Part shown: positions 17,521 through 27,009 of the stretch, one piece after another
Position numbering within the stretch: the stretch's first letter is position 1
Layout of the letters: each line of letters opens with the position of its first letter
Source of the DNA: an uncultured Chloroflexus sp.
Lineage (GTDB): Bacteria > Chloroflexota > Chloroflexia > Chloroflexales > Chloroflexaceae
NCBI RefSeq assembly: GCF_937951745.1
Contig: NZ_CALFBQ010000047.1
Span: forward strand, 1 to 64,000
DNA length: 64,000 nucleotides
Reading direction: 5' to 3'
Notes under the pieces: generated by a model
The model's input: the letters and a program-made list of their open reading frames with translations, nothing else
The model's database searches: none
Told to the model about the DNA's origin: nothing
Position numbers and translations under genes: made by a program

Positions 17521-17711
17521 TTGGGTATCGCTAGGAAACAAGTTGCGAGTGATCGTTTATCTCTGGATAGTTGAAATTGTCTCCGTTCCATACATCCACT
17601 TGCTCCTCGCGCCCGTAAAGAGTAGTGAAGCCGGAAATTGTGCAAGATATTTGCAAAGAATTGCCAATACCGGTACGTGAGGAAGCGTTGTATTGTAGGG
17701 AGGAGACATCC

Positions 17712-18500
17712 GTGTTTCGCAAGCTGTCGATTGCCCTGACCACTGCCCTCTTGTTCGCCCTGTTGGTTGTGCCAGCTGCCTTTGCCCAGAGCGGCGCGGC
17801 GAAAGTGCGTGTGATCCACGCTTCGCCCGACGCGCCGGCAGTGGATGTGTTCGTCAACGGGAATGCAGTATTGACCAACGTCGGATTCTTTGCTGCGAGC
17901 CCTTACCTTGATCTGCCAGCGGGCACTTATCGCGTGCAGGTCGCGCCAACGGGTGCCGGCGCCGGTTCGGCGGTGATCGATGCCAACGTGACGATCGAGG
18001 CGGGCAAGGCCTACACTATCGCTGCGGTTGGCCCGGTGGCCAGCATCAAGCCGCAGGTGATCGTTGATGATTTGCGCGCTCCGGCGGCTGGCCAAGCCAA
18101 GGTACGGGTGTACCACTTCTCGCCCGATGCCCCGGCGGTAGATGTCAAGCTGGCTAATGGTACGACCCTGATCAGCAACTTGGCCTTTCCCGATGCCAGC
18201 AACTATCTCGAAGTTCCGGCAGGCACCTACGATCTGCAGGTGACTCCGGCTGGCGGTGATGCGGTGGTGATCAACTTGGCGGGCACGACTGTCAATGCTG
18301 GTCAGATCTACAGTGTCTTTGCCACCAACTTCGTTGCCAACATCACCCCGCAGCTCGCAGTGACCGCGCCGGTAACCACGGCAGCGCCAGCGGTGCTGCC
18401 CACCACAAGTGGTGAGACGCTGCCGCTGGCGGCGCTAGCCCTGACCGCGTTGGCCCTGACCGCGTTGGGTGGGATGGTGGTGCGCCGCAGTATGCGGTAA
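17712..18500 (+). CDS. Secreted DUF4397 repeat protein with C-terminal membrane anchor
   Basis: A 262-residue surface protein. A Sec signal peptide (VFRKLSIALTTALLFALLVV, cleaved about AFAQS) precedes two DUF4397 repeats, beginning KVRVIHASPDAPAVDVFVNG (about 37) and KVRVYHFSPDAPAVDVKLAN (about 137). The C-terminus has the layout of a cell-wall sorting signal: LPTTSGE, a hydrophobic helix, then RRSMR, though the motif is LPTTS rather than LPxTG. I start at GTG 17712 because GGGAGGAGA lies just upstream. DUF4397 proteins are extracellular, of unknown role. It follows the nucleotide-sugar cassette but is separated by a terminator. Confidence 0.87.
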   Translation: MFRKLSIALTTALLFALLVVPAAFAQSGAAKVRVIHASPDAPAVDVFVNGNAVLTNVGFFAASPYLDLPAGTYRVQVAPTGAGAGSAVIDANVTIEAGKAYTIAAVGPVASIKPQVIVDDLRAPAAGQAKVRVYHFSPDAPAVDVKLANGTTLISNLAFPDASNYLEVPAGTYDLQVTPAGGDAVVINLAGTTVNAGQIYSVFATNFVANITPQLAVTAPVTTAAPAVLPTTSGETLPLAALALTALALTALGGMVVRRSMR

Positions 18501-19013: not shown

Positions 19014-19042
19014 TTGACAACCCGATACAAATAGTGTAAAAT
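19014..19042 (+). promoter_or_regulatory. Near-consensus sigma-70-type promoter
   Basis: TTGACA (19014-19019), a spacer of exactly 17 nt, then TAAAAT (19037-19042). Among the strongest promoter matches in the window. It drives the 63-residue membrane protein at 19122. Confidence 0.8.
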
Positions 19043-19046
19043 TGAC

Positions 19047-19062
19047 ACTATACTAGTATAGT
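19047..19062. promoter_or_regulatory. 16-bp perfect palindrome at the expected transcription start (operator candidate)
   Basis: ACTATACTAGTATAGT is its own reverse complement and sits 4 nt after the -10 box, over the predicted start site. A bound dimer would block initiation. A further hairpin, GGCACT-CATT-AGTGCC (19076-19091), lies in the leader before AAGGAGG. Confidence 0.6.
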
Positions 19063-19121
19063 ACATTTTTCAACCGGCACTCATTAGTGCCAATGAGACA
19101 TTTACAAGGAGGCGCGCCATA

Positions 19122-19313
19122 ATGACCATCTTTCTATTGGGGCTGACGGCGCTGGTAGGTGTAACGGTAGCCAGCGCGGCGCTACCGCTGCCCACACCGC
19201 CGCCAGTGGTCTATCTGCGTGCCGAAACTCCAGCAGAGTCAGGTGGCGGTGACATAGGGTTTGCGTTACTTATCTTTGTGATATTGGCGTTGGTGGTGGC
19301 GATGGCGGTGTGA
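19122..19313 (+). CDS. 63-residue membrane protein of unknown function
   Basis: A short protein with two hydrophobic stretches: residues 1-20 (MTIFLLGLTALVGVTVASAA) and 44-63 (GFALLIFVILALVVAMAV). They are joined by a Pro-rich linker (LPLPTPPPVVYLRAE). The first may be a signal peptide. AAGGAGG precedes the ATG by 10 nt, and the strong promoter and palindrome upstream show it is a dedicated transcription unit. It converges with the ATPase gene, 14 nt away. I do not recognise the family. Confidence 0.7.
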   Translation: MTIFLLGLTALVGVTVASAALPLPTPPPVVYLRAETPAESGGGDIGFALLIFVILALVVAMAV

Positions 19314-25827: not shown

Positions 25828-27009
25828 ATGAACGTTGAATCTCTTCAACCAACGCCTCAAACCGCTGCGTATGCGTTTGGTGATTGCTGGCCACGCCAAG
25901 TGGCGCAACCGATGACCGTGGCCGAAGTGGCCGAGGTGCTCGCTGCCGCATCCCGCGCGCAAGCGGCAGTGGTGCCGTGGGGCGCCGGCACACGCCAGTT
26001 TTTGATGAACCCGCCTCCACGCTACGATCTGGCCCTCGATTTACGCCGGCTCGATCGGGTGATCGAGTATCATCCCGCCGATCTGGTCGTGATGGTTGAG
26101 GCCGGCATCACTTTGGGCGCATTGCAGGCCGTGCTGGCCGAGCACGGGCAATGGCTGCCGTGGGATCCGCCGACGTCTGATACCGCTCCTATCGGTGGCT
26201 TGTTGGCGACAGCGGCGTGGGGGCCGTTGCGGCTCGGCTATGGCGGGCCGCGCGATTGGCTGCTCGGCATGCGGGTGGTGCTCGGCGATGGCCGGATCGT
26301 CCAGAGCGGCGGGCGGGTGGTTAAGAATGTAGCCGGTTATGATAATCACAAATTACACCTCGGCGCTTTCGGTACGCTCGGCGTCATCGCTGCCGTCACC
26401 TTTAAAGTCGCGCCGTTGCCAGAACGCATCGCCTCGGTGCGGGCCGTCTTTGCCACCCCGGCCGCGGCGCTGCACGCCGCTACTGCCATCCGGCAACCGC
26501 CAACGCAACCGGTTGCGTTGGCCATCACTGTGGCCGAGACGGTCACGCTGGCGGTTCGGTTTGCCGGCGTCGCAGCAGCCGTCGAGCGCCAGCTTGGATT
26601 GGCGACCGCTGCTTGTGCGTTGGCGGAAGCGGTGACGCTGAGTACCGATGATCGTGAACTGTGGGCAGTGCCCTCCGCGCCGGACGATGCTCTTGTGCTG
26701 CGCATTGGTGTGCCTGAGCGGATGCTGGCGGCGGCGATCGATGCGGTAACGGCGCTGGCTCCTTCCCACCTCGCCATCTTCCCCGGTCTTGGCCTGATGG
26801 TTGGGCGCTGGTCAATGGCGGCAGCAACGCACCTGCCCGCTCTCCGTCAAACCCTCGCCGAGATGGATGGCTACGCCGTGGTTGAACGCGGCCCCGCCGG
26901 GATCGATCGCTGGGGGCCGCCACCGCCAACGATCGATTTGATGCGTGCGTTGCGCCAGCGTTGGGATCCGGCGGGTATTCTCAATCCGGGACGGTGGCTG
27001 GTGGAGTAG
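25828..27009 (+). CDS. glcE: Glycolate oxidase subunit GlcE (FAD-binding)
   Basis: A 393-residue FAD-binding partner of GlcD. It shows the PCMH fold motifs VVPWGAGTRQFL, TLGALQAVLAEHGQWLPWDP, GGLLATAAWGPLRLGYGGPR, and the GlcE-specific GGRVVKNVAGYDNHKLHLGA. It ends with the typical DPAGILNPGRW. It directly follows glcD. The third subunit, the iron-sulfur GlcF, is absent: the next genes are a small membrane protein and gpmI. Confidence 0.92.
   Translation: MNVESLQPTPQTAAYAFGDCWPRQVAQPMTVAEVAEVLAAASRAQAAVVPWGAGTRQFLMNPPPRYDLALDLRRLDRVIEYHPADLVVMVEAGITLGALQAVLAEHGQWLPWDPPTSDTAPIGGLLATAAWGPLRLGYGGPRDWLLGMRVVLGDGRIVQSGGRVVKNVAGYDNHKLHLGAFGTLGVIAAVTFKVAPLPERIASVRAVFATPAAALHAATAIRQPPTQPVALAITVAETVTLAVRFAGVAAAVERQLGLATAACALAEAVTLSTDDRELWAVPSAPDDALVLRIGVPERMLAAAIDAVTALAPSHLAIFPGLGLMVGRWSMAAATHLPALRQTLAEMDGYAVVERGPAGIDRWGPPPPTIDLMRALRQRWDPAGILNPGRWLVE

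What the first reader, a model, noticed from the sequence alone, without database searches (positions are those of the whole stretch)
19014..19313. 63-residue membrane protein with its own near-consensus promoter and a perfect 16-bp operator-like palindrome
TTGACA-17-TAAAAT is one of the best promoters in the window; ACTATACTAGTATAGT sits over the expected start site; a second hairpin and AAGGAGG follow in the leader. Such dense control for a tiny two-helix protein suggests a tightly switched product (toxin-like, stress or envelope peptide).
Basis: partly seen in the sequence, partly recalled or inferred. Interest (0 to 1): 0.6.

Follow-up and report, generated by a model that had tools for sequence, protein, structure and literature searches.

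The report
NAD-regulated small membrane protein gene
The gene makes a tiny two-helix membrane protein that appears to be switched by the same repressor that controls the cell's NAD-making genes; the control is of a known kind, but we found no description of this membrane protein or of the hairpin-containing leader in front of it.

Summary
The promoter (TTGACA-17-TAAAAT), Shine-Dalgarno, 63-codon ORF and perfect 16-bp palindrome are present. The palindrome is not the operator: it occurs once in the genome and is not conserved. The conserved palindrome is TAGTGT-N7-ACACTA at 19032-19050, over the -10, with a decayed second copy at 19085-19103.

That motif marks a small NAD regulon. In this genome it precedes NAPRT, nadA-nadB, a nicotinamidase candidate and a Nudix/winged-helix repressor (NrtR), plus this gene and a 56-codon ORF; across the family it recurs before nrtR, pncA, nadA and NAPRT genes.

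The protein is under purifying selection. All 12 close homologues (five genera) have boxes upstream; none of 22 distant paralogues examined does.

In relatives, and before nadA in other genera, a terminator-like hairpin lies between boxes, its base 17-21 nt before the next box (37 of 43 intervals; shuffled mean 8.5). In this strain that hairpin has decayed.

Best reading: an NrtR-repressed membrane accessory protein made when the NAD pool is disturbed. Regulon membership is well supported but untested at the bench; the protein's activity is inference. Toxin-like is unsupported.

The parts
19014..19019 (+). -35 hexamer TTGACA
   Evidence: present at the same place in all 7 leaders of the genus recovered, own included
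19037..19042 (+). -10 hexamer TAAAAT, inside NrtR box 1
   Evidence: the N7 of box 1 supplies a TATAAT-like -10 in the relatives
19032..19050 (.). NrtR box 1, TAGTGTAAAATTGACACTA (exact TAGTGT-N7-ACACTA)
   Evidence: the same motif upstream of NAPRT, nadA, pncA and nrtR
   Evidence: (single place in genome)
19051..19070 (+). position of the inter-box hairpin (TACTA-GTA-TAGTA) and T5 run; strong in relatives, weak here
   Evidence: -1.1 kcal/mol here against -11.9 (G007) and -8.2 (G003)
19076..19091 (+).
   Evidence: read; similar pairing visible only in the closest congeners
19085..19103 (.). NrtR box 2, decayed here (TAGTGCCAATGAGACATTT, 3 mismatches); TAGTGTCAATAAGACACTT in close congeners
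19106..19112 (+). Shine-Dalgarno AAGGAGG
19122..19313 (+). 63-aa two-helix membrane protein, motif PPVVYLRAE between the helices

Best explanation
The ORF is a member of the NrtR (Nudix-related repressor) NAD regulon. NrtR, encoded elsewhere in the genome (G000 contig C76) behind a box of the same kind, binds TAGTGT-N7-ACACTA over the -10 and blocks initiation; in relatives a second box downstream, and a terminator-like hairpin between the boxes, add a further layer that has partly decayed here. When the NAD pool changes, NrtR lets go and the two-helix membrane protein is made together with nadA-nadB, the nicotinamidase candidate and nicotinate phosphoribosyltransferase. The protein most likely works as a small membrane accessory (stabiliser or modulator of a larger membrane protein) in niacin acquisition or NAD(H)-linked membrane metabolism. 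Shown by sequence: ORF conservation, box, motif shared with NAD genes, NrtR present. Inferred: that NrtR is what binds the box, the effector, the direction of response, the protein's partner and activity. I put regulon membership at about 0.9 and the accessory role at about 0.4.
For: Own genome: all 6 places with the motif at 0-1 mismatch lie before NAPRT, a 56-codon ORF, this ORF, nrtR, nadA-nadB and an isochorismatase-family nicotinamidase candidate. The regulator has Pfam NUDIX (1.2e-26) plus NrtR_WHD (1.3e-21); its best solved relatives are 3gz5/3gz6 (4.5e-43). Family: 108 exact sites in 33 genomes of other genera against 13 for the reversed pattern; of 31 exact sites examined in 27 fetched loci, 25 have NrtR, PncA, NadA or NAPRT directly downstream. 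NrtR_WHD in 119 of 158 genomes of the class. Small protein: dN/dS 0.15-0.43 over 15 pairs; all 12 homologues scoring at least 70 bits have 2-3 boxes upstream, the own box 2 being decayed; 0 of 22 weaker paralogues do. The one congener lacking the gene (G006) shows no double box while keeping nrtR and the neighbouring AAA and SBP genes.
Against: No binding or expression data. NrtR_WHD was not found in two genomes that have boxes (G001, 82% complete, and G011, 100%). Within the genus the exact motif is less clean against its control (26 against 10 in 8 genomes). Nothing ties the protein's sequence to NAD chemistry: no Pfam or NCBIfam hit, and a wider set of paralogues has no box, so the fold itself need not be about NAD. 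Neighbouring genes differ between genera. Own box 2 and hairpin are decayed.
Confidence: 0.75

Rival explanations
1. The box-hairpin-box leader is itself the key device: each terminator-like hairpin is placed so that an NrtR dimer on the next box touches RNA polymerase at the terminator, so repressor occupancy and early termination are coupled (roadblock-assisted termination, or the reverse, protection from it). This can be true together with the best explanation.
For: Hairpin base to next box is 17-21 nt in 37 of 43 intervals against a mean of 8.5 (maximum 15) in 40 shuffles; 12 of 14 when one interval per genus and gene class is taken; terminator score 22.98 against 15.35 with sd 0.51; swapped-arm control 16.55 against 10.19 in small-protein leaders and 20.50 against 11.47 in the 262-aa-ORF leaders; nadA leaders of several genera carry three boxes and two hairpins in tandem.
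Against: The swapped-arm control is uninformative for nadA leaders (11.19 against 10.44); a dimer covering about 25 bp (figure for the relative BtAraR) would stop polymerase before it finishes the U-run, so simple holding in the U-run does not fit; intervals are related by descent; 29 of 43 intervals, not all, have more T after the stem than A before it; in this strain the hairpin is gone.
Confidence: 0.35
2. The peptide is a toxin of a type I toxin-antitoxin pair or another growth-stopping envelope peptide.
For: Small and hydrophobic, with a strong promoter; a weak promoter-like site on the opposite strand at 19093-19065 (9 of 12).
Against: The opposite-strand site is of a class expected about five times in the region by chance; one match per genome in own and 5 of 7 congeners; co-regulated with NAD synthesis; 12 of 12 close homologues follow NrtR boxes. 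No antisense RNA could be looked for.
Confidence: 0.05
3. The 16-bp palindrome ACTATACTAGTATAGT is the operator of a different, dedicated regulator.
For: Perfect symmetry at the expected start site.
Against: One place in the genome within 2 mismatches; absent from the six congener leaders recovered, where a hairpin of other sequence takes its place; palindromes of this length are expected about once per window.
Confidence: 0.04
4. The protein belongs to a general envelope family and its NAD control is incidental, for example adjusting the membrane to the metabolic state; its partner has nothing to do with niacin or NAD.
For: Paralogues of the same build (PPQVIYVQ...GCLPL) without boxes occur in many genomes of the family, sometimes several per genome.
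Against: The boxed group is distinct (motif RAE, at least 70 bits) and keeps its boxes in five genera.
Confidence: 0.35

Closest known systems
NrtR regulons of NAD metabolism (Shewanella, Synechocystis, Corynebacterium NdnR, Mycobacterium MsNrtR)
   Same: Nudix plus winged-helix regulator with a box before its own gene, palindromic operator with a 7-bp centre as in Mycobacterium (GTTTTCGA-N7-TCGAAAAC, passage of PMC6800001), targets nadA-nadB, pncA and NAPRT.
   Different: Operator AGTGT-N7-ACACT; includes a 63-aa membrane protein and a 56-aa protein; double or triple boxes separated by terminator-like hairpins; Nudix signature intact in 11 of 11 NrtRs examined, whereas a paper passage calls it impaired in NAD NrtRs (PMC4666351).
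RegPrecise Chloroflexi collection
   Same: A curated Chloroflexi regulog collection exists (passages of PMC3840689).
   Different: Whether it lists an NrtR regulog with this gene could not be read; only the paper's passages were seen.
Small membrane regulators such as MgtS, KdpF or AcrZ (recalled, no call)
   Same: Tiny hydrophobic proteins that act on larger membrane proteins, some under metabolite-responsive control.
   Different: No sequence relation tested; two predicted helices here; partner unknown.
Roadblock termination by DNA-bound proteins (review PMC10310618, passages)
   Same: A DNA-bound protein in the path of polymerase affects early elongation.
   Different: Here the box follows a terminator-like hairpin at constant distance; that coupling is not mentioned in the passages seen.

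Membership tests
NrtR NAD regulon | Regulator with Nudix domain and NrtR winged-helix domain encoded in the genome | tested here: met
   L036:2514-3233, PF00293 and PF21906 above cut-off; NCBIfam NF050029 matched at 6.2e-58 but 196 bits, below its cut-off of 400
NrtR NAD regulon | Shared palindromic box upstream of NAD genes and of the regulator itself | tested here: met
NrtR NAD regulon | The gene in question carries the box at its promoter, conserved in orthologues | tested here: met
   box 1 exact over the -10; 12 of 12 homologues scoring at least 70 bits have boxes
NrtR NAD regulon | NrtR binds the box and is released by an NAD-derived effector | not testable with these tools
   needs a gel shift; effector in Shewanella/Synechocystis is ADP-ribose, NAD for NdnR (passage of PMC4666351)
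NrtR NAD regulon | Impaired Nudix signature (described for NAD NrtRs, not strictly defining) | tested here: not met
   intact G-x5-E-x7-REUxEExGU in 11 of 11 sequences examined
Type I toxin | Antisense RNA antitoxin | tested here: inconclusive
   only a chance-level promoter-like site on the opposite strand; no transcript data
Type I toxin | Multi-copy, mobile or sporadic distribution | tested here: not met
   single match in own genome; present in 5 of 7 congeners, one match each
Known protein families (Pfam, NCBIfam) | Match above chance | tested here: not met
   0 families at E up to 1
Intrinsic-terminator attenuator | GC hairpin followed by T-run in the leader | tested here: inconclusive
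   met in relatives, not met in this strain
Riboswitch or other Rfam leader | Rfam match in the leader | tested here: not met
   0 matches in 13 loci of relatives at gathering thresholds; the window itself was not scanned

The most novel reading that the evidence does not exclude
In Chloroflexota the NAD repressor NrtR works through repeated operator-terminator modules: NrtR boxes are preceded, at a fixed 17-21 nt, by an early intrinsic terminator, so repressor occupancy sets whether polymerase terminates a few dozen bases after starting; one output of this device is a previously undescribed family of NAD-controlled two-helix membrane proteins.
Probability: 0.3. Interest if true: 0.7.

Novelty: new variant of a known kind. 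Interest (0 to 1): 0.5.

Why it matters
It gives an unannotated small membrane protein a regulatory home (NAD homeostasis) and hence a direct test, and points to a membrane component of NAD control in these bacteria. The constant hairpin-to-operator spacing across genera and across different genes suggests a repressor coupled to early termination, which can be checked with purified parts.

Tried and rejected
The 16-bp palindrome as operator: rejected. Toxin: no support. Known family for the peptide: none in Pfam or NCBIfam. A scan of genome contigs with the single peptide found no relative, so named organisms were not obtained. Rfam leaders: none. The 262-aa ORF between boxes and small protein in G041 looked to me like a cysteine hydrolase, but BLAST against the pncA candidate, Pfam, NCBIfam and PDB gave nothing, so I call it unknown; in G042 and G017, which have the boxes and that ORF, the small protein was not found beside it. 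DNA looping by helical phasing of the two boxes: total spacing runs from 48 to 61, so not favoured. Box 2 as a second promoter: no consistent -35/-10 seen by eye. Simple holding of polymerase in the U-run by NrtR: the distance is a few bases short, by my arithmetic from the 25-bp figure.

Rows dropped: of 32 leaders given, own (box 2 too decayed) and G086 (spacing over the limit) gave no interval; three loci (L053, L076, L077) were not given because their repeats did not look like the box, and matches without a locus were not given either. Own was added back by hand for the swapped-arm control (44 items). L203 was left out of the 22 paralogues because its frame was not resolved; L094 is counted although the script read its frame wrongly, because its upstream stretch was covered. 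Hits without a locus were not examined for boxes. In one search three of ten fragments (L079, L082, L052) were cut at coordinates that missed the inter-box hairpin and say nothing about it.

Full report
What is there. The window lies in a 4.25-Mb genome whose nearest held relatives (G001-G007) are of the same genus. At 19014-19313 there are a TTGACA-17-TAAAAT promoter, the best promoter-like site of the 11 kb scanned, a leader with several inverted repeats, AAGGAGG, and a 63-codon ORF.

ACTATACTAGTATAGT (19047-19062) is perfect, but the window holds two perfect palindromes of at least 16 bp where about one is expected, and the whole genome holds this one once even with two mismatches allowed. 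In congeners its place is taken by a hairpin of different sequence. As RNA it is no better than shuffles. I conclude that it is a strain-specific form, or remnant, of a leader hairpin.

The conserved operator. Comparison of seven leaders of the genus shows TAGTGT-N7-ACACTA over the -10 (19032-19050 here) and again 53-57 bp downstream (19085-19103 here, with three mismatches). In the own genome all six places with at most one mismatch precede: nicotinate phosphoribosyltransferase, a 239-aa Nudix plus NrtR_WHD protein, nadA-nadB, an isochorismatase-family protein read as nicotinamidase, a 56-codon ORF, and the present ORF. In 33 genomes of other genera of the family the exact motif occurs 108 times against 13 for the reversed pattern (sums made by hand from its table). 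In the genus itself the figures are 26 and 10 in 8 genomes, a weaker contrast. Of 31 exact sites in 27 loci fetched from other genera, 25 have NrtR, PncA, NadA or a NAPRT immediately downstream; of the six others, one has a protein with a weak QRPTase_N match (L170; just below its cut-off) and one a similar-looking ORF (L176), two have HSP70-like ORFs (L158 confirmed by Pfam, L161 by likeness) and two at one place (L162) are unexplained. NrtR_WHD is found in 119 of 158 genomes of the class. This is what an NrtR regulon looks like; the Mycobacterium NrtR operator also has two arms around a 7-bp centre (passage of PMC6800001).

The protein. Full-length homologues occur in 5 of 7 congeners (54-90% identity); in G005 the leader and first codons run off a contig end; G006 shows neither the gene nor a double box although nrtR and the neighbouring AAA and solute-binding genes are in place. 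dN/dS is 0.15-0.43 over all 15 pairs. A profile of 11 homologues finds 12 genomes in five genera at 70 bits or more; all 12 have two or three boxes upstream (own box 2 being the decayed one). More distant paralogues (below 45 bits, typically PPQVIYVQ...GCLPL) are common in the family; none of the 22 examined has a box. In G041 the small gene follows a 262-aa ORF behind three boxes. AlphaFold2 gives helices 2-19 and 45-62 with an unstructured link, mean pLDDT 78, pTM 0.37. No Pfam or NCBIfam family matches.

The leader hairpin. A search for two boxes 30-60 bp apart in 158 genomes gave matches in 31 and brought in leaders of the small protein, of nadA in other genera, and a few others. In 43 box-to-box intervals from 30 leaders, a terminator-like hairpin is the rule: mean score 22.98 against 15.35 (sd 0.51) for shuffled spacers. 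Its base lies 17-21 nt before the next box in 37 of 43, against a mean of 8.5 and a maximum of 15 in 40 shuffles; taking one interval per genus and gene class, 12 of 14. Exchanging hairpin arms between leaders lowers the stem score from 16.55 to 10.19 for small-protein leaders and from 20.50 to 11.47 for the 262-aa-ORF leaders, but hardly for nadA leaders (11.19 to 10.44), so paired change is supported only for the first two. T-richness follows the stem on the sense strand (4.5 T of 8 after against 2.8 A of 8 before; T greater than A in 29 of 43, ties in 7). Several nadA leaders carry three boxes with two hairpins in a row behind a good promoter. In the present strain hairpin and box 2 have both decayed, so whatever this layer does is probably weak or lost here.

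How it most likely works. Box 1 covers the -10, so NrtR binding should block initiation; that is inference from anatomy. The hairpin between boxes, where intact, is most simply an early terminator or a 5' mRNA structure. The constant distance to the next box suggests coupling with the repressor. A dimer covering about 25 bp (the figure for the relative BtAraR, passage) on the downstream box would meet polymerase slightly before the end of the U-run, so bound repressor and polymerase at the terminator must interfere; whether this promotes or prevents termination I cannot say. The protein's job is unknown; with its regulon and build, a membrane accessory for niacin uptake or an NAD(H)-linked membrane enzyme is my first guess, at about 0.4.

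Literature. Searches for NrtR with Chloroflexi, Chloroflexus, NAD, palindrome and ADP-ribose, and for Chloroflexus with small membrane protein, transcriptome and nicotinate, listed no paper on this regulon or peptide in the held library; a search for roadblock with intrinsic terminator, repressor binding and attenuation gave a review whose passages I read. The 2008 NrtR paper is not held (one search used the DOI of its companion paper, also not held). RegPrecise has a Chloroflexi collection (passages) that may already list part of the regulon; I could not read it. The claim of novelty is limited to that.

Noticed in passing
L035:4146-4316 (G000 contig C44:34945-35112): A 56-aa small protein (MYSTWLELTAAEVHQRD...) found in 8 of 8 genomes of the genus and in none of the 33 others of the family; 6 of 8 have an NrtR box (0-2 mismatches) at a near-constant distance upstream.
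   Followed up: partly
L052, L061, L062, L063, L064, L065, L067 (nadA leaders of other genera): Three NrtR boxes alternating with two terminator-like hairpins between promoter and nadA.
   Followed up: partly
L158:243-1817 (-) and L161: HSP70-like ORFs directly behind an exact NrtR box (PF00012, 2.1e-56 for L158); also suggested at L075 and L078.
   Followed up: no
L036:2514-3233 and ten other NrtR loci: The Nudix catalytic signature is intact in 11 of 11 NrtRs examined, unlike the impaired signature described for NAD NrtRs: these regulators may still hydrolyse their ligand.
   Followed up: partly
L083-L090, L093, L189-L202: A set of unannotated two-helix small proteins (PPQVIYVQ ... GCLPL) in the family, sometimes several per genome, without NrtR boxes.
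   Followed up: partly
L112:9329-10117 (-): 262-aa ORF of no known family between three NrtR boxes and a small-protein homologue in G041; also behind boxes in G042 and G017.
   Followed up: partly
window 26499-26522: A perfect 24-bp palindrome GCCAACGCAACCGGTTGCGTTGGC, the longest in the window.
   Followed up: no
window 17625-18500: The upstream neighbour is a DUF4397 protein (PF14344, 2.3e-53) whose like also neighbours the small gene in G002.
   Followed up: no
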